Of a stretch of DNA of 64,000 nucleotides, positions 601 to 63,584 are shown in pieces. A model generated the notes under the pieces. The model had not been told where the DNA came from and searched no databases. It worked only from the letters and a program-made list of their open reading frames with translations. Source of the DNA: Bedellia somnulentella (Eukaryota; Arthropoda; Insecta; Lepidoptera; Bedelliidae); the NCBI GenBank assembly GCA_963576735.1, contig OY755187.1:16554001-16618000 (forward strand), written 5' to 3'. The position numbers and the translations under genes were made by a program. How positions within the stretch are numbered: the stretch's first letter is position 1; each line of letters opens with the position of its first letter.

Positions 601-1360
601 AATTGTCGTGGAACCTTCTCCTGATTACTTCAGGTGTCTCACGATCAGCCAACTCAACTACGGTCTCACGTAAAGTTGAGAGTAGAACATTTTCGGGTCG
701 CGGCTGTAGGTTACCATTCTCATCCCTACGTGCTGCTGCGACTACAGGAAGATATGTTATATCCTGTGAATCAGTGATAACTCCTAGAGCGTCAATCGTT
801 ATCTTAATGGCTAGAGGATACATGTTGTATCTTGCGATATCCTCTATGAAATTCGCCCTGACGTTAGAGTGTGTCTCAATCGACTGCGGGGTCCTAAGCA
901 TAACACCCGACTCCTTTCTGGTCTTGATTACCTTGGCTTCAAAGGCAGCTAAGAACACTCTATACATAGCATATATACTGGGCATTTCCACACTCGCCCG
1001 GTATTGGCGCGCGGCGTAAGTTGTTATTACGCATCCGAAACCCATTGTGCGTGTAGTGACCGGCAGCATTTGCGGCTTCTTATTCACATTTTCAGTCAAC
1101 TTCGCTATCTGGTCTGCGTCCATGCCGACGAACAACTCCTTCTTTATTTCCTCCTGATTTTGTATTAACGTTTGCATCCCGGTTTTGAAGCGATGTTGTT
1201 CCATTCTTTTGCGGTTGTAATTCTGACGCGACTGTGACTCCTGGTTTCTCCTTGGCTTGTGCGGATGACGCTGGTTGCGGCTGTCTCCCGTCTCACTCCC
1301 TTGAAGGTCATCTTCGGTACGGCGGTTGTTTCGCGAGAACTGCGGAAAATTCCTAGGCAT
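601..1360 (-). CDS. Unknown Arg-rich ORF, open into the Copia fragment; possibly virus-derived
   Basis: An ATG at 1360-1358 opens a minus-strand frame of about 250 codons that continues without a stop into the Copia polymerase frame below 600. The first 70 residues are rich in Arg, Asn and Gln (MPRNFPQFSRNNRR at the start), a pattern typical of RNA-binding capsid or Gag tails. A compact non-repetitive domain follows. Base composition is clearly more GC-rich than the flanking AT-rich repeats. I do not recognise the family. An RNA-virus coat or nucleoprotein origin is a guess from composition and from the virus-like block 2 kb away. It interrupts a Harbinger transposase that starts at about 1400 on the other strand. 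Position 600 as the boundary is approximate. Confidence 0.45.
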
Positions 1361-1399
1361 CTTGCTCGCTCGTGGGGGCTGAAATCAGTATCCAAAAAG

Positions 1400-1909
1400 A
1401 ACTACAAATTTATTTTTATCGATATTGGCGCATACGGTAAAGAATGCGATTCAACTGTTTTTCAAAATTCAAAACTATATGAGTTACTTATTAACAATAA
1501 CCTACCATTGCCTGATCCTCAGCCACTGTGTGGTTCTAATAGACAAACCCCGTTTGTATTTGTCGGTGACGAAGCTTTTGGACTAAGCAAACACATTATG
1601 CGTCCATATGGAGGTAAAAATCTCAATATACGACAAAAGATTTACAATTATCGTCTCAGCAGAGCCAGAAGATATGTCGAATGTGCTTTTGGGCTTATGG
1701 TGAATAAATGGTGCATTTTTCACAAACCAATAGATATGTCCTATAATGTTGCTACGGATATTGTAAAGGCATGTTGTGTCCTACACTATTATGTCGCAGA
1801 TCGGGATGGTTATCGGCAAAACGATAAATTGGCAATAATTGATGATGAATTTCACTCAGCAACAGAGGATCACTACAATGGCAGTTACAGAAGATTTAAT
1901 CATCATTAA
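1400..1909 (+). pseudogene. Harbinger (HARBI1-like) transposase, C-terminal fragment
   Basis: The frame from about 1400 carries DDE_4 endonuclease motifs: DIGAYGKECDSTVF (second catalytic Asp region), PFVFVGDEAFGLS, and YNYRLSRARRYVECAFG, which contains the catalytic Glu, then NKW. These belong to PIF/Harbinger transposases, which cut and paste the element together with a MADF or Myb partner. The N-terminal half is missing: codons before about 1400 belong to other sequence read through. The frame ends at a natural stop at 1909. A MADF partner exon lies just downstream on the opposite strand, the usual Harbinger layout, as seen twice more in this window. Confidence 0.85.
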
Positions 1910-2414: not shown

Positions 2415-2990
2415 AAATTATTAGTTTTAAAATGGATATTATTGAAGTAATAACTGATAATTGAAGAGGCGAAACGAAGAGGGACCCATTTTCAGAAAAC
2501 CTGTTTTTACGGGAGGGACAAAAAACTGTTTATTTTAAAAATTAAACAAGATCATGCATAATTTTTATTTTTATTTCGATTAATATGCTTAAAACTATTA
2601 CATAACAAAAAAATAAAAGTTTTATGTTAATTAAACAAAACATAACATAACATAAACGTTCACGCCGTTTATCCCCGAAGGGGTTGGCAGAGGTACCAAT
2701 ACTCCTGAACTCACATGGCAAGCGCCATCTAGTTTCCAGAGAAGGTACCCACGTTTTGCTTAGACAGTGTACTCACGTGATAGGGGGCAGGCCTATCGCC
2801 GTTTTGTACGAATACACTGTCACATGACTAAGTACAACTCAGCCATGTGGGTTTCCTCACGATGTTTTCCCTCACCGTTAGCAACCATGATAAATTAACC
2901 ACACATATGACTTTAGAAAAGACAAATTGGTGTAGGCCCGTCCCAGGATTGGAACTCACGCCCTTCTGTTTTTCGGGCGGGTGTTCTACC
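2415..2990. repeat. Left arm of a long inverted repeat (partner 9156-9735)
   Basis: Reading this stretch and the reverse complement of 9156-9735 gives near-identical sequence for about 575 bp, starting at AAATTATTAGTTTTAAAATGG and ending at CGGGCGGGT. Both arms contain the transposon-end motif GAAGAGGCGAAACGAAGAGG at the same offset and the same SINE copy, so the arms arose by inverted duplication (or homogenisation) rather than two independent insertions. Together they bound the transposase and virus-like block. Confidence 0.85.
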
Positions 2991-3003
2991 CACTGGACTA
3001 TCA
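2646..3003 (-). mobile_element. tRNA-derived SINE, copy 1
   Basis: Minus-oriented copy. The 5' head near 3003-2940 has a pol III A-box-like AGTGGGTAGAACACC and a B-box-like GTTCCAATCC, followed by a conserved body (ACACTGTCACATGACTAAG, GATAGGGGGCAGGCCTATCG) and a tail ACGTTTATGTTATGTTATG. Four further copies sit at 9.15, 14.6, 35.5 and 36.2 kb. It does not fold as a functional tRNA and lacks an intact anticodon arm. Confidence 0.8.
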
Positions 3004-3172
3004 TGTCGCCTATAATTAATATAATATATAATTAAACAAACAGATACTTAATTAAAAAAATCAAAATAATGGGCCCTTCTTCTAGTGACCGCGTTCCATG
3101 TTCCTGTTTTCTAGTTATTTTATAGTTATGGGTTCGGCATACAGGTTATTATAAAAATCTATTGCCTTTGCC

Positions 3173-3475
3173 TTAGACACAGTACCAGACGATATCGGCA
3201 GCGGTGCGATGGTCAACAACAACAATCCGGGCCATGAGATGCACCCCATCCTCCATCACTCCTTTCGGTATGCCGCAGCCTCTACACTTATGGTCTGCCG
3301 GTAGCCGGTATCTCCTGAGAGATGAGTTAAACTTGTCGTACGGCGCCTCGAACCCACGCCTATTACAACCGCACTTCTTCTTCTCTGTTAACAATTTTCC
3401 TGCCTCTTCGATGAAAAGTGCCCAACTGTAGCGATAATCAGGGCGCATCTTGGGCACATCTATCTTCCCAATCAT
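3173..3475 (-). CDS. Small Cys/His protein, third ORF of the virus-like block
   Basis: A 100-codon ORF whose ATG overlaps the stop of the 868-codon ORF as ATGA, the arrangement some dsRNA and other RNA viruses use for coupled termination-reinitiation. Residues 34-36 are C-G-C, with a second pair C-R-G-C about 30 residues later and an HLMARIVVVDH tail, so a metal-binding fold is plausible. It ends at a natural stop. I do not recognise the family and see no polymerase motif. Overlap, common orientation and matching GC content tie it to the two ORFs upstream. It may be complete, or the start of a longer truncated viral gene. Confidence 0.45.
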   Translation of the reverse strand: MIGKIDVPKMRPDYRYSWALFIEEAGKLLTEKKKCGCNRRGFEAPYDKFNSSLRRYRLPADHKCRGCGIPKGVMEDGVHLMARIVVVDHRTAADIVWYCV

Positions 3476-6078
3476 AGGGCATCTGACGGTTTTTTGTGGT
3501 CCAGGTTGGTTTCCGCTTTGACCTCGTCCGTCCCCACCTTTGCTGCCGCCGCCTGGGTAGGGAGTGGAGGAGTGGTAGTATCCACACTCCCAGGCGACGG
3601 CCCATTTGTAAAATTCTCTTCTTGCTCATCGCCCTCTTCATCTTGGTTCTTTTTAGGAGCGTCACTCCTTGACTTTGCCAATCGGTTTAGTGACTTTTCA
3701 ATCGTGCCGCCTACACCGCGGGTAAGGTACAGTTGTTTTTGCGCGGTTCCCTGCACCAGGACCCCGGCACAAGCACGTCGCCTTACGGTGGTAGGTTGGG
3801 TCAGCGAGCTCTCTATTCTTGCTGCCACGTCAGAAGACATGACCAGGACCCGCAAATCCCCTTGCACCCAGTCCCTCTCCAGTACCCTAATGCCCCACCC
3901 GGATGCCTTTACGATGCTCGTGGGGTCCGTTATTGCATAGTTGCCCGACCACCCCATCGAGCTTGCTAACACACTAAATGTATGGCTCTCTACCCTAAAA
4001 CTGTATCCATCGGCGTGTAGCATCTCTGGTTTCGTGGCATAGCGTAGATCTTTATGTCTTAACATTAGGGCGTCGTAACGGTCCAGCATCTTGGCGATAT
4101 GTGGCATATCAGTGGCAATAGGGCCTGATTGCACCAGCATCCCCTCCGTCCAATGTGACGCTTGTCCGGTTTGCAACTCAAAACCGTCGATACCCGTTAT
4201 CACGCAACCCTTTGAGCTGGAGTACTCATTCAGCCACATTGATGAGCCGGTCCTAATCCCGGTGAACGTAGACACGATGTTTTGGTGGAGGTTCACCTCC
4301 CATGACCATCGTGCCCTGTTTTTGTCGCGCGAGATCAACATATCAACAATGTCTGTCATACAGTGCCCCGTGTTTAGTGTCTCAGGAGTACCATAGACGG
4401 CTTCGCGCCAGTACCCCTTTCGTGTGGACATATCCGCGGGGACGGCGAGGGCATCGAGCCAGCCCGCCGCCACCATCCACTCCTCTATACCCCTACGCAT
4501 GGCGTAGGAGCGGGACAGTTGATCAATAGTGGAACGTGAGGAGACGTCGAAACCATCATCTCCCCCCATTATCACTCCTTCCCCGAGGACAAAACGGCCT
4601 ACCCCGAGTCCCGTGGCCAATTCCACCTCATTGTTCCAATCTCCGAGGAATAGCGCGGGCTGCCGCTCTGCGGTCATCTTGTCGGTAAAGACGTGGTTCG
4701 TAGCGGTTATGGCGGAGGGGTGCAGGAAATATTCATCCTCGTCCACCCCCTCGCATATCGGTAGGCAAGACGTCCCATAGGCATCATTTCTGAATGCAGC
4801 GGGTAGATGATAAGTTTTCCTCTTCCCGTCACGATCCACCGATACTTCCGGCTGGGGAACATATCTGTGAACCAGGTTCACCACCATCTCGTCTATTACT
4901 TGCCACGATGGCCTCGAGTCACATCTGGTGGCTAGCCACTCGGAAGCTACTTTCACTAAGGAATAGTCCGTCTTCATAATGTCGTCCAGCATCCCTAGGA
5001 GCATCGGCCCTGAATTATAGGCGGGTATACGCTCCATGCTAGGTGCCCCCTGCCTCCTATGGGCGTCACGGTCACTCACCAGGTGTCTGTAGACTTCGTA
5101 TGTATAATCTCCTAACTCCACGGCTTCTGCTGTGCTCGAAACCACGAACACAATCCTTTTGGCTAGGGATGGTATCGTCACCAAGCCCTCCGTTCTGAGA
5201 AAGAAGGACAATTGTCTGGAGTCTACCCCCCCAGGCCCATTTACGTCGAATAGTTCGGTGCGCCATAGCAGCGGGTATCTTAGCCGGGTGACAGTCTGTA
5301 AGGCCCTGGTCAGGTGCAGTTGACCGGATGACTCGTCCAGGATAATTAGGACGGTTGACGGATCCTTCAAACTCCATGCTACGCCATCCTGTATTGGTAG
5401 TCTTCCAGTCAGCCTACCCACGACGTGCTCCAGGGTATGGACCCCTATGACACAGTGGCTGTATTTCCAACCGTCTATCCGGTCCAGTGCAGCCCATTCA
5501 GTTGGGACCGGGGCCTTCATAGGTACGGACCACTCCACCCCTGTCGGGAATGAAGGGCCCGGCTGTCTCAGATAATTGTAAAGTAAGGCCTTCATCATAA
5601 TTATTGACACATCGGCACGCGAGTGTTTGACGTATTCGCACGCTAATACCTGCACCTCCGGGCAACTTGCCACATAGGTCCATATCTTATTTGCATGCGT
5701 ACTATTGATACGCCCATCGCGTGAGGAAGGGTCCACTAGCTCCTGGTCTAAAGATATGACCCTGGTAGTGCCTATAAGACTCCCGGCATCCAAATGCGGG
5801 TCGTAGTGGACACAAATCCAGGTAGGATCACACAATATGGACCTGTCATATGCCTTGTTCCTCTCGAATATGTTCAGGGCAGTGGGCCCACCCGTGAGTA
5901 TGTCAAATAGGGATGAATCGTCGTACCGGGCGTGTAGCCCGGTTAAGGAGGCGCCACACCCGTTATCCCCTAAACAAGCTTGCATGCGCGAGACCGCAGT
6001 ACGCCTGGCCGCCCGTGCAGAGAGCCTAGGCATGCCTCGCCTTGAGAAAGTCTGTTGATACTGGTGCAGGGCCTCCAC
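3472..6078 (-). CDS. 868-codon intact ORF, virus capsid-like (inferred endogenous viral element)
   Basis: A single unbroken ORF of 868 codons in a region where almost everything else is broken. The annotated start is a GTG at 6078. The frame is open further upstream to about 6117, where the previous ORF overlaps it. The protein is globular, without transmembrane segments or transposase motifs, and ends in a charged, low-complexity tail. No intron signals are needed. The region is GC-richer than its surroundings. The size, the packed co-oriented neighbours, the G-run overlap upstream and the ATGA overlap downstream resemble a toti-like dsRNA virus coat gene copied into an insect genome. That origin is inference: I recognise no signature motif. 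Alternatives are a Gag-like or novel element protein. Confidence 0.5.
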   Translation of the reverse strand: MEALHQYQQTFSRRGMPRLSARAARRTAVSRMQACLGDNGCGASLTGLHARYDDSSLFDILTGGPTALNIFERNKAYDRSILCDPTWICVHYDPHLDAGSLIGTTRVISLDQELVDPSSRDGRINSTHANKIWTYVASCPEVQVLACEYVKHSRADVSIIMMKALLYNYLRQPGPSFPTGVEWSVPMKAPVPTEWAALDRIDGWKYSHCVIGVHTLEHVVGRLTGRLPIQDGVAWSLKDPSTVLIILDESSGQLHLTRALQTVTRLRYPLLWRTELFDVNGPGGVDSRQLSFFLRTEGLVTIPSLAKRIVFVVSSTAEAVELGDYTYEVYRHLVSDRDAHRRQGAPSMERIPAYNSGPMLLGMLDDIMKTDYSLVKVASEWLATRCDSRPSWQVIDEMVVNLVHRYVPQPEVSVDRDGKRKTYHLPAAFRNDAYGTSCLPICEGVDEDEYFLHPSAITATNHVFTDKMTAERQPALFLGDWNNEVELATGLGVGRFVLGEGVIMGGDDGFDVSSRSTIDQLSRSYAMRRGIEEWMVAAGWLDALAVPADMSTRKGYWREAVYGTPETLNTGHCMTDIVDMLISRDKNRARWSWEVNLHQNIVSTFTGIRTGSSMWLNEYSSSKGCVITGIDGFELQTGQASHWTEGMLVQSGPIATDMPHIAKMLDRYDALMLRHKDLRYATKPEMLHADGYSFRVESHTFSVLASSMGWSGNYAITDPTSIVKASGWGIRVLERDWVQGDLRVLVMSSDVAARIESSLTQPTTVRRRACAGVLVQGTAQKQLYLTRGVGGTIEKSLNRLAKSRSDAPKKNQDEEGDEQEENFTNGPSPGSVDTTTPPLPTQAAAAKVGTDEVKAETNLDHKKPSDAL

Positions 6079-6098
6079 AAACGCATGCCACCTGTCGT

Positions 6099-6966
6099 CT
6101 AGGGCCGGGCACCCCCCCTTAATCTGATGTTATCATTATCGCCAGCTGCGGGCCCTTGCAGGGGAGTGGATCGCGTCAGCGGGTTAGGGGCAAGATCTTC
6201 TGCCGAGGCGTATTGAGGAGGGGACGCCACCAGGTTCACCACCGGAGGATTTCCGGGTTCAGCTGCTGGGACCATAGGAACCGCGTGAAGAGATGGCTCC
6301 CGCGCGGCGGACATTGACCGTGTCGTTGGGCGCCGTGCAAACGATGGGCCCGGGGTGCTGTCACTCCTTGTCCCCACGTCCGAATCACTAGCGTTGGGGC
6401 CAACTGAATAGCTCCGTGGGTCGTAGTCGGTAATTGGGGGCCGCTGCCTCAACTTTTGCTTCCTAAATTTCCCTCCGCCCTTGCCCTTCGACTTCGGGGT
6501 GGTCAATGCGCGGTCGGAGCCTTGGCTGGGTCCAGGGGTGCCAGGGTCCAGCGAAAGTAAGCCTAGTTGAGGCAGGTCCATTTCCTCAGAGGTGGCAGCC
6601 CCCCCTGAGTGGCCGTTGCTGTGCAAAGGGGGGAGTAGTACTTCAAGATGCCTCGCCCCCAGGCACATCTTGCGCCAAAACATGTAGCGCGTCGGGTATG
6701 TTGTTGCTACGTCAACCCCCCCTATGTTAGATCTCGAGGTGGTGTGCCTCACCACCTCCCCTTCGATCAGGCGTTCTACGGCGTCATCGGAGACGTTCCT
6801 CGGCAAGGACAGCCTCGTGTCCCTCCCCACACGGCTGCCCAGGTCGGCTATGAGCATTACACGTGTAGCTCCAGGGTTCGCTGTGAAGGATATGTTCCCG
6901 TTCAGGCTATGCATCTCCCGATTGTGGGCGGTCGCTGCCGCCCGCAGGGCTTCGGCGTTCTTCCCC
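6099..6966 (-). CDS. First ORF of the virus-like block, in frame with a transposase end
   Basis: This is the last ~288 residues of a 428-codon ORF that starts at 7385 in transposase sequence. From about 6966 the character changes: an Ala/Arg-containing globular part, then a long Pro/Ser/Gly-rich low-complexity tail with basic patches (KSKGKGGGKFRKQK). Its final codons overlap the start of the 868-codon frame. Within that overlap the phase G_GGG_GGT fits a -1 slippery heptamer, and a -1 slip there would enter the 868 frame. The natural start of this protein is lost at the transposase junction. Family unknown. Grouped with the virus-like block by frame overlap, orientation and GC content. Confidence 0.45.
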
Positions 6967-8641
6967 ACATACTGTGCAAGATTTCTGACATCTTTAAGCT
7001 TGCCTGGTTTGATGGGTAGCTGTCCTGGGTACATTCCTTGTGTTGGAAATGAAAAACTCATTGCCTGGTCTTTTACTATGCTGTATTTCCAGTTATTCCA
7101 GGGAGGGTTGTCTTTTTGGAAAACAAACTTTTTATATTTAGTAATGATATATTTCACTCTGCGGTCATTTAATGCTTTTATCTTTTGTGTGGGTATAAAG
7201 TATGGTTCTAGTTGTGTTGTGAAGTCTTTTATCATATCCCCTGTAACTTCAACGGTTTTAAACATTTCAGATATCTTGTTTATCCAATCTTCAGGAGTTT
7301 CAACCTTCTCAATCCGTCTTTGCATTTTTTCAATCATTGCAAAATGCCGATCACATGGGAGGTAACTGTGGCCTCTTTCTGGCAATTCTTTTCAAATTTG
7401 CCATTTTGAACTAATGACTGCCAAAATCGTACCATTGTATGGTTAACATTCTGGCCTCTACAGCCATCAGTATATATCAAAAGATGTTTGACACCCCTTT
7501 TCAAAAATACTCTGAGGTAATGATCTAGTACAGAAGCTACTTCATTAGCTCCCTTTTTGGCAATATTTTCTGGCCAACGATAAATAACACTTCTTCCACT
7601 TTTCCCAGAGTAGACAGACATGACATGAAGCCATAACTGGCGGCTGTAAAATACTTCCCCGATTGCCATATGAGGACAAGGAATGTTTTGCTTGAAATCA
7701 AAGCATATTACATCAGTTTCTGGATTGGTTTTGCAAAATTCTAAATCACTTCTTAATTTTGAGTAAAATAAATCTGCCTTCATTTTATGACACTTAAGTT
7801 GTGTCTCATACTGCTTCTGTACTGTATTACTTATCTCTTTATCTATTTTGGCTTTCAAACCTTCACATGTACTGCAAACATCAGTCCGTGGCCGTCCAAA
7901 GGGATAGTTATAGTGTTCTTGATAATAATTCAAGTAATACTTGTACGTCACTTCTGCTTTTACAGTCTTTGCATCAGATGGGCGGTTGATTGTAGCATAC
8001 ACTTCTGGGAAGTGCAGTTTTAAAAACAAAATGTACATTTTAAGTACATTTAGTTGTGACGACAGATACCTCTTTTTCATACCAGTTTTACCATAGTGGC
8101 ACAGATCATAGGGAAAGCTTTCAATGTTACATTTGACAAGATCTACAAGCTGATCACTCTTTTTGTTTGCACGGTTATTATGACGTTCTCGAAGATCTTT
8201 GGGTAATTTACCTTGCGCTTTCAAGTTAGCAACTCGTCGAACTCTCTTTGTTCCGATTCCATGTAAACTGGCAAATCCTTCTCTGCACACTCGTTTGACG
8301 ACTTCTCCAATGTGTACTTCATAGATGTAATTTTGTAGACACGGTCGATTCCCACTAGTCGATCGAACAACGGGCTTCACTTTGATTAAATTTTGTAAAT
8401 ATGCGTCTTGAGCATTTTGCTCACTAAGACCATTGAAGTTTTGAAGGATTCTTGTCGATAAATTTGCAGTAAACGACGACAGACACCTTCTTTTACATCG
8501 ACATGTCTTCCCGGTTTTACGTTCAGATTTTGGTTAATTTTTCCTGTTTGTATACGCCTCTACTTTAGCTCTTTTTACTTTTGCTAAATTATCCTTCCAT
8601 TGCTCTTCATCTCTTTTACGTTTTGGAGTGAATTCGCTCAT
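6967..8641 (-). pseudogene. DDE-type DNA transposase of unassigned superfamily
   Basis: Minus-strand coding from ATG at 8641 (MSEFTPKRKRDEEQW) through a Cys-rich N-terminus (CRCKRRC near 8495, VCSTCEGL near 7880), the core DVICFDFKQNIPCPHMAIGE, then LIYTDGCRGQN, then GHSYLPCDR. This order is shared by a large, poorly named family of insect and cnidarian transposon proteins. I take the conserved Asp residues as the catalytic site (inference). Two breaks: an in-frame TAA near 8535 and a frameshift at 7340-7385 just before GHSYLPCDR. The last recognisable family block (LPIKPGKLKDVRNLAQYV) ends at about 6966, where the frame continues into virus-like sequence. I do not assign it to Sola, Zator or another superfamily without a search. 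Confidence 0.65.
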
Positions 8642-8749
8642 TTTTTAGCTCGACAACCATAAAAATATTGAATTTAAACCGCCAAATAGAAAATAACCTC
8701 AAAATCGTTTGACAGTGACATAACCTGTCGATGTTGCCAGTCCGAAGAA

Positions 8750-8945
8750 AAACGGCCCAATTTGAAGAAATGGGCCTGTCTTCTATTCACTCAATAATCA
8801 AATGTCGTATTTGTCTATGGTAAAATGGGGCCGTTCTTCATGCGACCATCTAGAAGCCATAAACTAAAGACGTTTAATAAAAAAAAAAAAAAGTCTAAAA
8901 GTTGTCGAATGGGCCCCTCTTCGTTTCACCTCTTCAATTAGAGCT
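8750..8945 (+). repeat. Subterminal repeat cluster and inner end of the transposon
   Basis: Variants of AATGGGCCNNTCTTCNNNNNNAC occur near 8782, 8824 and 8908, with a further copy near 3068 and, as GGGTCCCTCTTCG, near 9652. The 8908 copy continues as CACCTCTTCAATTA, the same terminus found inverted at 2460 and direct at 9652-9680. Arrays like this are normally transposase-binding sites. They lie just upstream of the transposase start, so they mark the right end of the element before the outer arm was added. Confidence 0.6.
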
Positions 8946-9155
8946 CGAAAAAAGAAAAAACGATTTTGGATTCATCATCTCTTATTCGTCATCGTTTAAA
9001 CAACGGACAGTTTTCTAAAATATTTCCGAACTTAATGATTACCCCGATAAGTTCTTCAAATATTATAGAATGCATAAAGAGAGTTTTTACCAGGGTTGAT
9101 ATAAATCCTGTTATTAAAAAAAAAAAATATCGGATTAATTTGATTTATTGGATTT
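8946..9155. other. Spacer between inner transposon end and right arm
   Basis: An AT-rich 200-bp stretch with a run of A at 9115-9127. A short open frame starts at 8966 (MDSSSLIRHRLNN) but runs through the A-run into the SINE, so I do not call it a gene. Confidence 0.4.
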
Positions 9156-9735
9156 TACCCGCCCGAAAACAGAAGGGCGTGAGTTCCAATCCTGGGACGG
9201 GCCTACACCAATTTGTCTTTTCTAAAGTCATATGTGTGGTTAATTTATCATGGTTGCTAACGGTGAGGGAAAACATCGTGAGGAAACCCACATGGCTGAG
9301 TTGTACTTAGTCATGTGACAGTGTATTCGTACAAAACGGCGATAGGCCTGCCCCCTATCACGTGAGTACACTGTCTAAGCAAAACGTGGGTACCTTCTCT
9401 GGAAACTAGATGGCGCTTGCCATGTGAGTTCAGGAGTATTGGTACCTCTGCCAACCCCTTCGGGGATAAACGGCGTGAACGTTTATGTTATGTTATGTTT
9501 TGTTTAATTAACATAAAACTTTTATTTTTTTGTTATGTAATAGTTTTAAGCATATTAATCGAAATAAAAATAAAAATTATGCATGATCTTGTTTCATTTT
9601 TAAAATAAACAGTTTTTTGTCCCTCCTGTAAAAACAGGTTTTCTGAAAATGGGTCCCTCTTCGTTTCGCCTCTTCAATTATCAGAGCGCAAATACAAGTT
9701 GTTTCTACTAAATCCATTTTAAAACTAATAATTTA
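9156..9735. repeat. Right arm of the long inverted repeat, with SINE copy 2
   Basis: Reverse complement of 2415-2990. It contains the plus-oriented SINE copy from about 9160 to 9495, with the same unusual head insertion (CGAAAACAGAAGGGCG) as copy 1, then the AT-rich segment and the transposon terminus CGCCTCTTCAATTATCAG near 9680. The outermost 25 bp match the left arm's outer edge. Confidence 0.85.
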
Positions 9736-11349: not shown

Positions 11350-12159
11350 ATGAAAAAATATTTTCTTCACATAATTAATTAAAATGTCTACATCACTATA
11401 GTTTAAACGTAATGTTTCTGTTAACCTATGCAAGGCGTGAGCTAAACAAGTGGAATGTTTTTAATTGGGAAACGTGTTTTTTAATATTTTGCCAGCTAGT
11501 AACATATATGCTACGCTATCGGTACATAATATTAAAACATCTTGTACTTTATTTTCTAATTGACATCCCCATAAGTTTTTTAAACATTGAATCACAAACT
11601 CTGCTACTGAGCGACTATTAACCACATCTAAAGCTTGACAGGTTAGCAAGTATATTGGTTCTGAAACATTTTCACTTAGAGGTTTTACTAAAAAGTTTAC
11701 AACAAATCGACCCAGACTGTCAGTGGTTTCGTCTAACGATATCCAAATCTTTTTGTTTTGTATTTTACTTTGGATAAGTTTCATTTTACTGTCGTAAATT
11801 TCACTCAAGTACTTCTTTCTCAGCAAAGACTCACTTGGAATGGTTCTGTCTTTGTTGTTACATTTACAAATGTATTTTTCGAAAAAATTGCGAAAATTAG
11901 GGTTGTCAACTTTTGACCATGGTATGTTGCAAATAATTAGAAAATGAACCAGATCAAAATAAAAATCACTTGGCGCTGCTGCTTGAACACCACGATGTTT
12001 TTGTGACTTCAGATGTCGGTTCAAAATAGTTTTCTTTGCATTTAAACGTGTCTCACATTTTGTGCAAGTTATACTGCTAGTTGCCGGATCGTAAAACATC
12101 TCTGGGTAATTTCTTATCCATGATTGAGCTATGTCTTCTTTTTGAGTTGATTCCGCCAT
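11350..12159 (-). pseudogene. hAT transposase B, N-terminal part
   Basis: ORF from ATG 12159 with a zinc finger near residues 32-56 (CTKCETRLNAKKTILNRHLKSQKH-like spacing C-x2-C..H-x5-H), then ISLDETTDSLGRF (first catalytic Asp region), LCTDSVAYML (second) and, after a stop at 11461, CLAHALHRLTETLR. This is the CGGBP1-like type of hAT. The sequence switches near 11345 to hAT pseudogene A. The catalytic Glu and dimerisation domain are missing. Confidence 0.75.
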
Positions 12160-14644: not shown

Positions 14645-15012
14645 CAGCCGTGATAGCCCAGTGGGTAGAACACTTGGTTATCGTGCAAGCGACTAGTGTT
14701 CGAATCCTGAGTCGGGCCTACACCAATTTGTCTTTTCTAAAGACATATGTGTGGTTAATTTATCATGGTTGTTAACGGTGAGGGAAAACATCGTGAGGAA
14801 ACCCACATGGCTGAGTTGTACTTAGTCATGTGACAGTGTATTCGTACAAAACGGCGATAGGCCTGCCCCCTATCACGTGAGTGCACTGTCCATGCAAAAC
14901 GTGGGTACTCTGAACACCAGGTGACAAGTCACGTGATGTTCAGAAGTATTAGTACCTCTGCCAACCCCTTCGGGGATATTCGGCGTGAACGTTTATGTAT
15001 GTTATATGTTTA
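14645..15012 (+). mobile_element. tRNA-derived SINE, copy 3 (best head)
   Basis: Full-length-looking copy: head GTGATAGCCCAGTGGGTAGA (A box TAGCCCAGTGGG), B box GTTCGAATCC, SINE body with ACATGACTAAG.. on the reverse, tail CGTTTATGTATGTTATATG. The pol III promoter boxes are about 35 bp apart as expected for tRNA-derived SINEs. Confidence 0.85.
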
Positions 15013-21167: not shown

Positions 21168-23048
21168 TTATACTTTCTGGCAACTGGAACATACAACATT
21201 TGGGACGGAATGTGTCTTACAAATAAAATGTAAACATTTAGAACATTTTAGAGAATGTTTTCGGTCATTTTTCCAATCGCATAGGTAGCATCTGGCCCTT
21301 TTCCGATTTGAAATTGAAGCTGCAGAAGAGGTCGATGCAACTGGTTCTTCAAGCTGGGATGGATTTTCCGGCTGCTTATGTATTTGCTCCAAAATGTTAT
21401 CAATCCTCCTCTTTAGATCATTGGAAAAATTAGCATACCCTGTTTTCCGTTGCAATATAAATGGTGTTACCAAATCTAAACCTATTTTCCTAATATATTT
21501 GTTCCTCTTCATGCGTTTTTCAGGATTGGAGGCTTTCCAAAGTACATATCCATTAGCTGCAGAAATATTCAATATTGCCCAAAAAATTACACATGGCCAT
21601 CTCTGAGTTCTTCTTCCTACCGAGTAATTCGCACATTTTTGGTCTAAAGAATCAACACCGCCTTTGGTACTATTATAAAATTGAATGATTTCTGGTTTGC
21701 CGCTTTCAGTGTCGACGGATTCATCATGGTGCATAGTTGAAATCAGGACTACACTTTGATTTTTTTTAGGGACAAAAGAGCAAAGAGTTTTATCATTTGT
21801 GAAACCAAATAAACTAGAACCTACTGGACGAGTTTTATGCGGTAAAAATTCTGGAGGGATTTCGCGTTTATTTTTACGCAATGTTCCGACATATGTCAAG
21901 CCCACTTCTTTCAGTTTATCGACTAGTTCGATCGAGGAAAACCAATTGTCTGCCGTGATATTTCTATTTGAATTCTTCAAAGGTTCGGCTAATTCCAAAA
22001 CTGTGCGTGTAGGTATAGATACATCAGTTCTTCTTGATTCTGTTTTACCAGTATATATAAAAGCGTTGTACAAATAATGAGTTCTAGAATCGCAAAGGCA
22101 TAAAATTTTGATCCCATATTTCGCCGGTTTTGATTTCATGTATACTCTAAATAAGCATCTTCCTCGAAACGGACACAACATCTCATCTACAGTGATATAT
22201 TCAGAGCAACTGTAGTTTTTTTGGCAATTCTGTATAAACATATTGAATACTTCAGATATTAGCGCAGCTCTATCGTTTGCTTTTCTTTCGGTCCTCGTTT
22301 CAATGTCATCAAAACGTAAAGCTGACGCAATAAAAAGGTATCTTTTTAGAGACATAGTCACCCTGAAAATATCTCTACCTGTACCATCCGAGTTCCATAA
22401 ACCTTCAAGATCTTCATGTCCCGATTTGAAAACTCCAGCCAAAATGGTAAGACCCAAAAAAGCGTCCATTTCAGTCTTTTGTATGGAATTTGTAAAAGCA
22501 CCAGTGCTTGAATTAGACTCCCTGAATTCCGTAATTTTTTTATTGGTATGTAAAATAATTGTTTCAAGCATCTCATTCGTCACTAACAACTGCCATGACT
22601 CCAACTCTGACATATTAGTTTTTTCACGAGCTGGGCCTACTAAGCCAGGAAGGTGTGTAATTATGTTATGCCTCCTCGTTCGGGATCTACTTGGAGCTGT
22701 TTTAGACCATTTGTAACGATTTTTACCTCGATAACAATTTGACGTCCGCCCTCCTTCATCCTCATCTTCTTCGCCCTCATCTCTCGTATTTTCGTTCCTC
22801 GTATTTTCTCTTATTCTCGTATTCTCCTCTTCGTTTGCACTGTCGTCAGAACTTATTCCAAATACACTGACTTCTGAGCAACTAACAGGTTCGGGACTGT
22901 CTCGATCGCTGATGATTTCGTCGTCACAAAGTTGGTTTATATTTGGTGTCGTTTCATTTTCAGATTCCAAATCATCATTTAAGTCGTTCATCAACTCCTC
23001 TATTTGTCTATCGTTCAAAAAGCCCCCCATTGTAGAACAAATATTCAC
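21168..23048 (-). CDS. piggyBac transposase, intact 626 codons
   Basis: Uninterrupted ORF of usual piggyBac length. An acidic N-terminus (residues 20-100) precedes the DDE_Tnp_1_7 core. The three catalytic Asp candidates are visible: D288 in EYITVDEM, D367 in NITADNWF, and D466 in KGGVDSLDQ. The C-terminus carries a Cys-rich finger (CYLCDWKN...CSKCLHFICK...CSSC) that binds the subterminal DNA. A second ATG (MGGF) at codon 7 may be the true start. piggyBac excises precisely from TTAA. The right terminus is visible at 23300 but the left one is not, so the element as it stands may be immobile in cis, although the protein could act in trans. Confidence 0.95.
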   Translation of the reverse strand: MNICSTMGGFLNDRQIEELMNDLNDDLESENETTPNINQLCDDEIISDRDSPEPVSCSEVSVFGISSDDSANEEENTRIRENTRNENTRDEGEEDEDEGGRTSNCYRGKNRYKWSKTAPSRSRTRRHNIITHLPGLVGPAREKTNMSELESWQLLVTNEMLETIILHTNKKITEFRESNSSTGAFTNSIQKTEMDAFLGLTILAGVFKSGHEDLEGLWNSDGTGRDIFRVTMSLKRYLFIASALRFDDIETRTERKANDRAALISEVFNMFIQNCQKNYSCSEYITVDEMLCPFRGRCLFRVYMKSKPAKYGIKILCLCDSRTHYLYNAFIYTGKTESRRTDVSIPTRTVLELAEPLKNSNRNITADNWFSSIELVDKLKEVGLTYVGTLRKNKREIPPEFLPHKTRPVGSSLFGFTNDKTLCSFVPKKNQSVVLISTMHHDESVDTESGKPEIIQFYNSTKGGVDSLDQKCANYSVGRRTQRWPCVIFWAILNISAANGYVLWKASNPEKRMKRNKYIRKIGLDLVTPFILQRKTGYANFSNDLKRRIDNILEQIHKQPENPSQLEEPVASTSSAASISNRKRARCYLCDWKNDRKHSLKCSKCLHFICKTHSVPNVVCSSCQKV

Positions 23049-24012: not shown

Positions 24013-25303
24013 CGAGGGCTGCTATTTATGTATCCGGAATAAAAAAAAGAAACAAACATATATCAATTAATATGGTTTTATTGCTTCTCAAAATATTCGC
24101 CGCTCAGATCTATACACTTTTGCATGCGTTGAAACCAATTTTCATAGCACTTTTTCCACTCAGACTGAGGTATCTCCAAAACGTGCATTTTGAACGCATC
24201 GACTGCCTCTTCGCGGCTCGAAAAACGTTGACCACGTAATTTTTTCTTCACATTTGGAAATAAATAAAAATCATTGGGTGCCAAATCAGGGCTGTACGGC
24301 GGATGACCTGTCAATTCGATCTTTTGAGCTTCTAAAAACTGAGTTGTGACGGCCGACCTGTGACAGCTAGCATTGTCGTGATGCAGAATGATTCTACGTT
24401 GTCGGTTAGTCTTTCTTATTTGTTCAAAGACTTCCGGCAAACAAATGGTCGTATACCACTCCGAATTAACAGTTTTACGATTCTCTAAAGGCACTGTAGC
24501 TACATGGCCATTTATACCAAAAAAACAAGCGACCATTTGCTTCAATGTGCTTTTTGCACGAATAACTTTTGTTGGGTTCGGCTCATCTTGGAACACCCAC
24601 ACCGTGGACTGCTGCTTAGTTTCGGGGTCGTAAGCGTAGATCCAAGATTCGTCACCTGTGTAGATATTATAAACAGCTTTTGACGCACCACGGTTGTATT
24701 TTTTTAACATTTCTTTGCACCAATCGACACGAGCCTGTTTTTGATCAATACTCAAGTTGTGCGGAATCCAACGGGAGCAAATTTTTTTTACAGCTAAATG
24801 TTCATGAAGTATCTTATGTATGCTCGTCATACTAATGCCCAGAGATGCCTCTATCTCACGATATGTAACATGACGATCTTGAGTTATTAGTTCCCGGACA
24901 GCATCGATGTTTTGAGGTACAACGACCGTTTTAGGGCGACCTTCTTTAATTTCATCAGTAAGCTTAGATCGTCCACGATTAAACTCGCTAAACCAGTGAT
25001 ACACAGTGGTCTTTGAGGGTGCTTCATCCCCAAAAGTTGAAGTAAGCTGATCGATGCACTGTTTTTGAGTTAGACCACGCCGAAAATCGTAAAAAATCAT
25101 GGCACGAAAATGTTCACGAGTTAAATCCATGGTGGTGAAGACACGCAATTTTCAAAATGACGCTACGATGTGAAAACAATTGACAGTCACATAAAAATAA
25201 ATGTATTCTAAAGCTAAAGAGTTCTATTTTTAAATGATGTAATTACTTTTTAAATTATTGTTCTGTAAGTGGCCAGTTCCGGATACATAAATAGCAGCCC
25301 TCG
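24013..25303 (-). mobile_element. Full-length mariner element
   Basis: Inverted ends CGAGGGCTGCTATTTATGTA..., about 27 bp and essentially perfect, flanked by TA at 24011-24012 and 25304-25305. Length 1291 bp, normal for mariner. It contains one uninterrupted transposase ORF, so the copy may be capable of movement. Confidence 0.95.
24078..25148 (-). CDS. mariner transposase, intact (DD34D)
   Basis: 356 codons from 25148. The ATG at codon 7 (MDLTREHFRAM) is the likelier start, giving 350 residues. The N-terminal half has two helix-turn-helix regions for binding the inverted ends (RRGLTQKQCIDQL, YREIEASLGISMTSI). The catalytic triad is D166 (TGDESW), D258 (HHDNASCH) and D293 (YSPDLAPNDF), with exactly 34 residues between the second and third, the mariner hallmark. 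Mariner moves by cut and paste into TA. No frameshift or stop is present. Promoter sequence would lie in the 155 bp between the ORF and the right end. Confidence 0.97.
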   Translation of the reverse strand: MRVFTTMDLTREHFRAMIFYDFRRGLTQKQCIDQLTSTFGDEAPSKTTVYHWFSEFNRGRSKLTDEIKEGRPKTVVVPQNIDAVRELITQDRHVTYREIEASLGISMTSIHKILHEHLAVKKICSRWIPHNLSIDQKQARVDWCKEMLKKYNRGASKAVYNIYTGDESWIYAYDPETKQQSTVWVFQDEPNPTKVIRAKSTLKQMVACFFGINGHVATVPLENRKTVNSEWYTTICLPEVFEQIRKTNRQRRIILHHDNASCHRSAVTTQFLEAQKIELTGHPPYSPDLAPNDFYLFPNVKKKLRGQRFSSREEAVDAFKMHVLEIPQSEWKKCYENWFQRMQKCIDLSGEYFEKQ

Positions 25304-35540: not shown

Positions 35541-35544
35541 AGAC

Positions 35545-35655
35545 GTGGGTACCTTCTCTGGACACTAGATGGCGCTGCCATGTGAGTTCAGAAGTATTGG
35601 TACCTCTGCCAACCCCTTCGGGGATAAACGGCGTGAACGTTTATGTTATGTTATG
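35545..35655 (+). mobile_element. tRNA-derived SINE, copy 4 (5'-truncated)
   Basis: Only the 3' third is present: ACGTGGGTACCTTCTCTGG to TTATGTTATGTTATG. 5' truncation is expected for LINE-mobilised SINEs. Confidence 0.8.
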
Positions 35656-35690
35656 TTCTAGATTTTAAAGTCTATCTAGTATAGACTCAT

Positions 35691-36026: not shown

Positions 36027-36175
36027 GCTCCACAGTGATTCGTTTAGTAAAAGTTAGGGCTCGGGAATTATTTTATTGGTTTTTTGTAGCCTTAACCCAC
36101 TAATAAGTGCTAAAACGTGGAAATTTATTAATTTACTTCATTCTGAAGTGAAAAAAAAATTAGGTGTGTAAAAAC

Positions 36176-36545
36176 ACATAACATAACATAAACATAAACG
36201 TTCACGCCGAATATCCCCGAAGGGGTTGGCGGAGGTACTAATACTTCTGAACATCACGTGACTTTATCACCTGGTGTTCAGAGTACCCACGTTTTGCATG
36301 GACAGTGTACTCACGTGATAGGGGGCAGGCCTATCGCCGTTTTGTACGAATACACTGTCACATGACTAAGTACAACTCAGCCATGTGGGTTTCCTCACGA
36401 TGTTTTCCCTCACCGTTAACAACCATGATATATTAACCACACATATGTCTTTTGAAAAGACAAATTGGTGTAGGCCCGACCCAGGATTTTAATACTAGTC
36501 GTTTGCACGATAACCGAGTGTTCTACTGGGCTATCACGGTTGGTA
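36176..36545 (-). mobile_element. tRNA-derived SINE, copy 5
   Basis: Minus orientation, nearly full length. The tail ACATAACATAACATAAAC is at 36176 and the head with ATAACCGAGTGTTCTACTGG and GGCTATCACGG is at 36500-36545. Most similar to copy 3 (both carry the GAACATCACGTGACTT segment that copies 1, 2 and 4 lack), so two SINE subfamilies are present. Confidence 0.8.
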
Positions 36546-54918: not shown

Positions 54919-55044
54919 GGCATGGCTGTGACATTCAGTAACATGGCTGTGATGCTTGGTGGCATGGCTGTGACTTGTAGTGGCATGTCTGTGATACTTG
55001 GTGGCATGGCTGTGACATCAGGTGACATGGCTGTGATAACTGGG
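54919..55044. repeat. Minisatellite, six 21-bp units
   Basis: Six tandem units of the form GGCATGGCTGTGACTTGTAGT, diverged mainly in the last 8 bases. The unit is a multiple of three, so the plus frame reads GMAVTxx repeats and the minus frame TAMPPxx repeats, both open through the array. No credible gene context on either side. Confidence 0.85.
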
Positions 55045-62275: not shown

Positions 62276-63584
62276 CAGGGTGGGCCAATAATTTTTGCAC
62301 TTTTAAAACATGAATAGAAATAAAACTACAACTGTTATTTTGTTGATTATATTTTTAACGTTTTAAACATTTAATGAAATTTATTTTTTAAAAATGACAT
62401 CGTCGAGATGTGCACCGTCTCGTCGTTGGCACTCTAGCAATCGACTACGCAAACTTTGGAAAACTCGCTGACACATGCTGCGGGGGATCGCGGCTATCTC
62501 GTCGTGGATGTTTTGTTTTAATTGGGATATATTCGTCGGTTTATTAAGGTAGACTCGACTTTTCAGGTATCCCCATAGGAAAAAATCGCATGGTGTAAGA
62601 TCCGGGCTTCTCGGAGGCCATGGAATATCACCTCTGCGAGAAATCAATTTATTCGGAAACATTTCTTTGACTACCGGTAAAGTCACATTTGACGTGTGGC
62701 ATGTTGCTCCATCTTGTTGCATCCAGGTCCTGCTGTTGTATCCTTGAAATTCATGCAACTGCGGCGTCAAAAACTCTCGCAACATCTTAACGTATTCCGC
62801 TGAATTCACAGTTACATTATTTCCTTGATTATTTTCAAAGAAATACGGACCAATTATGCCCTTTGCTGATATGGCAGCCCATACTGTCGTTTTAGGTGAA
62901 TGAAGTGGCTTTTGGTGTTTAAGGCGAGGGTTTTCCCTGCTCCAATATCGACAATTGTGCTTATTCACGTGCCCGTTGATGTGAAAGTGGGCCTCGTCCG
63001 TAAACAATACATTCTCCAGGCTAGAGAATTGCTCCAGCATTGTGTCAGCCAATAACTTACGTTGAATGTAATCATTTGGTTTCATCTCCTGCACAATTTG
63101 AAGCTTATACGGGTGCAGTTTTAGGTCTAGATGCAAAATCCGCCGTAGACTGGTTCTCGGTAATGCCAGAACCGCCGAATGCTTACGCGTAGATAATTCT
63201 GGATCGTCCCGAACGGAAATTTCAACCTCTCGAATGTTCTCATCGGTTCTTCTTGAACGTGGCCGGCCTATTTGTTTAATATTCGTTGTCGATCCCGTTT
63301 GCTCGAACTTTACGACCCAAGATTTGATTAAATTCACACTTGGACACTCGTTTACACGGCGTAATCCATATTCAATTCGAAACAGGCGTCGTACAGTAAC
63401 GTAGGAATCGTTGTTTTTGTAAAATTGTTTAACACAAAAAGCACGCTGTTGTCACGTGAAGCGCTCCATCGTGACTAAAATTGCATGTAGCGACGCATAG
63501 TTTCCCGCCACCCGCGCACCCCTCCCTCCAACGGTATTCGAGAAATTTAGTGTTGCTATTTGCAAAAATTATTGGCCCACCCTG
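62276..63584 (-). mobile_element. Tc1/mariner element, DD41D type
   Basis: Inverted ends CAGGGTGGGCCAATAATTTT, perfect for about 24 bp, flanked by TA at 62274-62275 and 63585-63586. 1309 bp. It lies inside LINE 2 ORF1. Confidence 0.95.
62381..63469 (-). pseudogene. DD41D mariner transposase, one nonsense codon
   Basis: Start MERFT at 63469, then TGA, then QQRAFCVKQFYKNNDSYVTV (first helix-turn-helix), NECPSVNLIKSWVVKFEQTG, and the 318-codon ORF from 63337. Catalytic Asp in that ORF: D114 (LFTDEAHF), D209 (MQQDGATCHTS) and D251 (PPRSPDLTPCDFF), with 41 residues between the last two. DD41D marks the rosa-like Tc1/mariner lineage. AT-hook-like GRPRSRR is near residue 25. The TGA at codon 6 is the only lesion. 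Starting at a later Met would lose the DNA-binding region. Confidence 0.92.

What the first reader, a model, noticed from the sequence alone, without database searches (positions are those of the whole stretch)
2415..9735. Transposon enclosing a three-ORF virus-like block, with an intact 868-codon ORF
The sequence shows a DDE-type transposase gene, transposon-end motifs and ~575-bp inverted arms, and between them three co-oriented, tightly packed, GC-richer ORFs with no introns. In a locus where most ORFs are broken, an 868-codon ORF has stayed open. Known precedents exist for RNA-virus genes copied into insect genomes and for virus-transposon hybrids. Here the captured genes lie inside the element and would travel with it. 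If other copies share the same content, this is a mobile element that carries viral coat genes, a possible new class.
Basis: partly seen in the sequence, partly recalled or inferred. Interest (0 to 1): 0.92.

Follow-up and report, generated by a model that had tools for sequence, protein, structure and literature searches.

The report
Foreign gene fragment stranded in transposon
A 3.8-kb piece of foreign, tightly packed coding DNA, probably from an unrecognised virus, landed inside one copy of a jumping gene; the four other copies that could be examined do not carry it, so there is no sign that the jumping gene spreads it.

Summary
The block is real, but the evidence points to a one-off insertion, not a new class of virus-carrying transposon. 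The host element is a DUF7869-family DNA transposon, 2462-8936. A 3784-bp GC-rich segment (6965-3182) sits inside the last codons of its transposase gene. The four other copies found in the same genome lack it; in each the two flanks meet directly. In the window both joints carry TGTG, so this is an insertion and hardly an assembly join. Only the 868-codon ORF is complete. It is far longer than chance gives, but no search found a relative (Pfam, PHROGs, NCBIfam, PDB sequences, a 5.8-billion-protein set, others), so viral origin is inferred from architecture alone. The long inverted arms are not the transposon's ends but a later inverted duplication containing part of a young SINE-like repeat. 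The transposase is broken, and the copy is young enough that an open ORF needs no selection. Whether the segment occurs elsewhere in the genome is untested: that search did not complete.

The parts
2462..8936 (-). DUF7869-family DNA transposon (6475 bp with SINE-like repeat and foreign segment), ends TGAAGAGG/CCTCTTCA
   Evidence: ends aligned with copies L016, L019, L020; coordinates checked
2460..2461 (.). 2-bp target duplication AT, left
   Evidence: TT, TA, AT at the three other copies with both ends
8937..8938 (.). 2-bp target duplication AT, right
7388..8641 (-). transposase, N-terminal and catalytic part; in-frame stop at about 8536
6966..7385 (-). transposase C-terminal part (140 codons), out of frame with the former (frameshift near 7388)
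   Evidence: tblastn with the homologues; the C27 and C8 copies read across this place
3118..3177 (-). last codons of the transposase, beyond the foreign segment
   Evidence: contiguous with 6966 in four empty copies
3182..6965 (-). foreign coding segment, 3784 bp, GC 0.555
   Evidence: empty sites in L016, L018, L019, L020
6966..6969 (-). TGTG at upstream joint (duplication or microhomology)
3178..3181 (-). TGTG at downstream joint
6102..6965 (-). foreign ORF1 fragment, 288 codons, open through the upstream joint and in frame with the transposase piece; basic, Pro/Ser-rich tail
   Evidence: no family match, no IMG/VR relative
3472..6078 (-). foreign ORF2, 868 codons (open from 6129), no relative found
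3182..3475 (-). foreign ORF3, 98 codons inside the segment, starts in an ATGA overlap with ORF2, cut off by the joint
2633..3009 (-). SINE-like repeat, young, between transposase and left end, with about 12-bp duplication (TTTGTTTAATTA)
9157..9734 (-). inverted duplicate of 2415-2982 (left transposon end, flank, part of the SINE-like repeat)
3068..3082 (-). subterminal motif GAAGANGGGCCCATT (also at 2476+, 8769-, 8908-, 9648-)

Best explanation
The fragment holds the end of one gene, a complete 868-codon gene and the start of a third. It has since sat there as a passenger. Shown: an insertion with an empty site in four other copies, TGTG at both joints, no poly-A at the joint, all three frames open to the joints, transposase broken. 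Inferred: viral origin, reverse transcription of RNA, joining by end-joining with 4-bp microhomology or with a 4-bp duplication, and no function.
For: Empty site CAGTATGTG^TCTAAGGC in 4 of 4 other copies found; none of the three foreign proteins matches the five fetched stretches with those copies (tblastn at E<=0.01). Segment 6965-3182 with TGTG on both sides. GC 0.555 against 0.367; codon-position GC 0.56/0.46/0.60 in ORF2. ORF far beyond chance. Frames overlap without spacers: ORF1/ORF2 by about 31 nt in different frames, ORF2/ORF3 by ATGA. An AUGA overlap between CP and RdRp genes is described for a megabirna-like dsRNA virus with 60.2% GC (PMC9244493, passages). Toti-like insertions, a few within transcripts with intact ORFs, are described in three planthoppers (PMC10636211, passages). 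No phage or plasmid relative by tblastn and none in prokaryote contigs by a pattern scan that reaches close relatives only.
Against: No sequence similarity to any virus protein or to anything else, although the protein set holds nr and UniRef entries (source labels), and no RdRp in the fragment. AlphaFold models made without relatives are uninformative (mean pLDDT 31.9 and 35.3). TpA is not depleted in the block (0.98). The in-phase GGGGGGT in the ORF1/ORF2 overlap does not meet the usual slippery rule (Y = A/U, stated in PMC9244493) and the folds beside both overlaps are no better than shuffles (four stretches, z -0.07 to 0.53). A 4-bp duplication could also come from an integrase.
Confidence: 0.6

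Rival explanations
1. The segment comes from a DNA virus (of arthropods, with packed, intronless genes) and was inserted as DNA.
For: Intronless, co-oriented, overlapping frames without poly-A at the joint fit this equally; orphan genes are usual in such viruses (recalled).
Against: No match in Pfam, NCBIfam or the 5.8-billion-protein set; two frame overlaps in a row are more typical of RNA virus genomes (recalled; one AUGA example in PMC9244493).
Confidence: 0.15
2. The segment is not viral: a piece of an unknown mobile element or of another organism's DNA.
For: No viral homology at all; the window is full of transposon-like ORFs.
Against: No second copy of it within the window; no relative in phages, plasmids or the large protein set, nor by the pattern scan of prokaryote contigs; packed overlapping frames are unusual for eukaryote DNA (recalled).
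Confidence: 0.17
3. One reading: a mobile element that carries viral coat genes and spreads them.
For: The segment lies between the two true transposon ends, and both ends and the 2-bp duplication are present, so the unit could in principle be moved in trans.
Against: 0 of 4 other copies found carry it; transposase with one stop and one frameshift here, and interrupted or shortened in the other four copies.
Confidence: 0.05
4. The 868-residue protein was taken over by the host and is kept open by selection.
For: No stop inside the 885-codon frame, while the transposase has two lesions.
Against: The carrier copy is young: 11 private substitutions in about 1020 aligned bases; substitutions at that level leave this frame free of stops in 317 of 1000 simulations (indels not modelled). 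Transcription was not tested.
Confidence: 0.05

Closest known systems
Non-retroviral endogenous viral elements of toti-like viruses in insects, e.g. planthopper ToEVEs (PMC10636211, passages seen)
   Different: No sequence match to any virus here, so membership is not claimed; the segment lies inside one copy of a transposon gene with an empty site in other copies.
Teratorn (piggyBac-herpesvirus fusion; recalled, also named in a passage and reference of PMC10636211)
   Same: Virus-type genes between transposon ends.
   Different: Teratorn is a fusion of a transposon with a herpesvirus present in many copies (recalled); here one fragment, one carrier copy, four empty copies, broken transposase.
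DUF7869 (PF25273) transposase proteins of animals (hagfish, weevil, medaka and moray among the named rows)
   Same: The host element's transposase aligns along its length with P0001 (57% for the main part).
   Different: This copy is broken and split by the insert. A search for the name DUF7869 in the held papers gave 0; the transposon superfamily name was not settled.

Membership tests
DUF7869-family DNA transposon | transposase homologous to PF25273 proteins | tested here: met
   27 homologues, 16 with PF25273, best E 1.9e-124; Pfam itself gives only E 0.025, below its cut-off, on the broken ORF
DUF7869-family DNA transposon | terminal inverted repeats and a target duplication of constant length | tested here: met
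   TGAAGAGG ends and 2-bp duplications in 4 of 5 copies (AT, TT, TA, AT); the fifth (L018) has no complete 3' end. Matches of 2 bp are weak one by one
Endogenous toti-like (Ghabrivirales) viral element | sequence similarity to CP or RdRp of such a virus | tested here: inconclusive
   none found, but capsid proteins diverge fast (recalled) and the protein search needs shared 5-residue words
Endogenous toti-like (Ghabrivirales) viral element | adjacent large ORFs with AUGA overlap or -1 frameshift site | tested here: inconclusive
   ATGA overlap ORF2/ORF3 and frame overlap ORF1/ORF2 present; no canonical slippery site in the overlap, no unusual fold
Endogenous toti-like (Ghabrivirales) viral element | RdRp gene downstream of the CP gene | tested here: inconclusive
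   no RdRp match in any ORF; ORF3, where it could begin, is cut after 98 codons
Virus-transposon hybrid (Teratorn-like) | several copies share the viral content | tested here: not met
   0 of 4 other copies found carry it; genome search with the segment itself unanswered
Virus-transposon hybrid (Teratorn-like) | working transposase | tested here: not met
   stop at about 8536 and frameshift at about 7388
LINE-made retrocopy | poly-A at the 3' joint and a target duplication longer than about 7 bp (recalled) | tested here: not met
   4-bp TGTG only, no A run at the downstream joint
Endogenous viral element | same joints in reads of the animal or in related species | not testable with these tools
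   no reads held; one search states that this genome has no relatives here

The most novel reading that the evidence does not exclude
The segment is the only known trace of a virus lineage without recognised relatives, and the transposon copy that swallowed it still has both ends and can be moved in trans by a working transposase of the same family, so that virus genes became transposon cargo.
Probability: 0.05. Interest if true: 0.75.

Novelty: new member of a known kind. Interest (0 to 1): 0.38.

Why it matters
Empty sites in sister copies fix both joints of the insert to the base, show a 4-bp repeat and no poly-A, and so bear on how foreign RNA or DNA enters such genomes. The 868-residue orphan protein is a probe for an undescribed virus.

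Tried and rejected
Rejected: that the 575-bp arms are the transposon's terminal repeats. They contain a repeat with 43 matches in the genome (268 first-look candidates, 40 scored): the two arms, 38 other places and 3 short pieces beside these; none of the 41 outside the arms covers the first 155 bases of the arm. Rejected: RdRp for ORF2 (no Pfam match; the recalled motif order is absent). Not supported: a programmed frameshift. No use: AlphaFold on ORF2 whole and on residues 600-800; I ran no fold search because both models are of very low confidence. Nothing found: six IMG/VR scans, one genome-contig scan (9 stretches matched a pattern, none confirmed), phage and plasmid tblastn, Rfam on the window (0 matches), NCBIfam. 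Papers: searches were answered; searches failed; one search was repeated unchanged. Passages of PMC11907880 had nothing that bears on this.

Full report
What was claimed. A transposon at 2415-9735 with long inverted arms encloses three packed, GC-rich, virus-like ORFs, one of them an intact 868-codon frame.

What is there. The window lies in an unnamed 549-Mb, 486-contig genome (C19:16554001-16618000) and is crowded with transposase-like and reverse-transcriptase-like ORFs (two tested by Pfam, the others judged by eye). On the minus strand a transposase gene runs from about 8641. It has 27 homologues at E<=0.001 among 734 scored candidates, 16 of them with PF25273/DUF7869; the best full-length one (P0001, 601 aa) is 57% identical. 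Mapped back by tblastn, P0001 covers 8635-7382, with an in-frame stop at about 8536, and then 7385-6957 in another frame; the other rows that I could see follow the same two blocks as far as they reach (the middle of that output was cut).

The insertion. At 6966 the composition changes from about 0.37 to 0.55 GC. The last codons of the transposase reappear at 3177-3118, 3.8 kb further on, as the C-termini of homologues show. A search of the own genome with the transposase 5' half (7386-8907) gave 6 matches in 6 scored candidates: the window itself and four other copies, one of them in two pieces. I fetched all four. In 4 of 4 the two flanks meet directly: CAGTATGTG^TCTAAGGC. The three foreign proteins match nothing in those five fetched stretches (tblastn, E<=0.01). 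The window has TGTG at both joints (6969-6966, 3181-3178). The foreign segment is therefore 6965-3182, 3784 bp, and nothing is missing at the joint itself. Both flanks meeting at one point in four copies makes an assembly join very unlikely (inference).

The foreign segment. It is coding from end to end: an ORF1 fragment of 288 codons, open through the upstream joint and in frame with the transposase piece; ORF2, 868 codons from a GTG, 885 stop to stop; ORF3, which starts in an ATGA overlap with ORF2 and is cut by the downstream joint after 98 codons. The longest open run in 500 Markov shuffles was 331. Codon-position GC in ORF2 is 0.56/0.46/0.60, a pattern of real genes. ORF1 is basic (pI 9.9) with a Pro/Ser-rich tail; ORF2 has pI 6.0 and no strongly hydrophobic stretch (best 19-residue mean 1.37); ORF3 is basic (pI 9.4) with 5 Cys.

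Identity. No significant match: Pfam, PHROGs, NCBIfam, PDB sequences (ORF2 and the 428-codon ORF), the 5.8-billion-protein set in two searches of ORF2 with 7997 and 7995 scored candidates, the second at E<=10, IMG/VR in six scans, prokaryote genome contigs, phages and plasmids. Limits: the protein search needs shared 5-residue words, the scans reach close relatives only, and ORF1 and ORF3 were not put to the large protein set. Single-sequence AlphaFold models are useless. Viral origin is thus an inference from packed, overlapping, intronless frames, foreign GC and the absence of cellular relatives. The ATGA overlap after a large ORF resembles CP-RdRp junctions of some dsRNA viruses: a megabirna-like virus with AUGA and 60.2% GC is described in PMC9244493 (passages). 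A programmed frameshift between ORF1 and ORF2 is not supported: the in-phase GGGGGGT breaks the usual rule, and the neighbouring folds are ordinary. Whether that overlap is native, decayed or an assembly error is open.

The arms. The true ends of the transposon are TGAAGAGG/CCTCTTCA at 2462 and 8936 with AT on both sides. The copies on C27, C25 and C12 show TT, TA and AT; the C8 copy has no complete 3' end. Between the transposase and the left end lies a SINE-like repeat (about 2633-3009; SINE is my label by eye) with a 12-bp duplication. It is absent from 4 of 4 sister copies and 96.4-99.7% identical to the six best other genomic matches. The right arm (9157-9734) is an inverted copy of 2415-2982 and includes part of that repeat, so it formed later. 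The 100% identity over 519 bp means a recent event, gene conversion, or an assembly error; I cannot separate these.

Age and selection. In four aligned blocks (about 1020 bases, 3 to 5 copies each; block 7440-8600 left out of the count because only one other copy covers it, 16 differences in 1158) the window copy has 11 private substitutions, about 1.1%, by majority and without an outgroup. Its private deletions are 1, 8, 24 and 15 bases. Substitutions at 1.1% leave the 885-codon frame without a stop in 317 of 1000 simulations (indels not modelled, and they would lower this number). Openness is therefore weak evidence of selection at best. The frameshift near 7388 is not shared by the C27 and C8 copies, which read across it. 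The C27 copy has its own stop and a large insertion, and the C8, C25 and C12 copies lack most of the gene.

Mechanism. Most likely: foreign nucleic acid, probably viral cDNA, joined into a break in the transposase gene of one copy, with 4-bp microhomology or a 4-bp duplication. The lack of poly-A and of a long duplication speaks against a LINE-made retrocopy. The result is a passenger. The unit still has both ends, so movement in trans is possible in principle, but nothing shows that it happened.

Known or new. Non-retroviral viral insertions near transposons are described: planthopper toti-like elements with a piggyBac predicted between two of them (PMC10636211, passages); transposase domains in the 10-kb flanks of horseshoe-crab elements (PMC12282059, passages). 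A search for DUF7869 gave 0 papers. Three answered searches around viral genes and DNA transposons (7 of 7 papers listed, 12 of 34, 15 of 20) listed no title that matches this case; I saw listings only, in an open-licence library. I file it as a new example of a known kind, a foreign (probably virus-derived) fragment inserted in a mobile element; membership in a named virus family is not claimed.

Limits. The decisive search, the segment against its own genome, was asked many times and never answered. Copies of the transposon that lack the 7386-8907 part would not have been found.

Noticed in passing
L016:4103-5671: A second, distant DUF7869-family element (26% identity to P0001) lies inside the 2.96-kb insertion of the C27 copy of the transposon.
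   Followed up: partly
window 2633-3009: Young SINE-like repeat, 43 matches (two of them the arms), up to 100% identity; in the window it recurs near 14698-15005, 36151-36488 and 35543-35657 (91, 88 and 97%).
   Followed up: partly
window 9157-9734: Inverted arm with a 519-bp perfectly identical core that post-dates a young repeat insertion: recent inverted duplication, conversion or assembly error.
   Followed up: partly
window 1259-1909: Harbinger-type transposase remnant (DDE_Tnp_4, E 2.5e-21; superfamily name recalled).
   Followed up: no
window 11461-12159: hAT-like remnant (DUF659, E 3.3e-8, just under Pfam's cut-off; label recalled).
   Followed up: no
window 21168-23048: 626-codon open frame that looks like a piggyBac transposase by eye; not tested.
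   Followed up: no
window 24078-25148 and 62381-63337: Open mariner/Tc1-like transposase frames by eye; not tested.
   Followed up: no
window 54919-55038: 42-bp tandem repeat, 2.9 copies.
   Followed up: no
window 6117: GGGGGGT heptamer in phase in the ORF1/ORF2 overlap; the fold beside it is no better than shuffles.
   Followed up: partly
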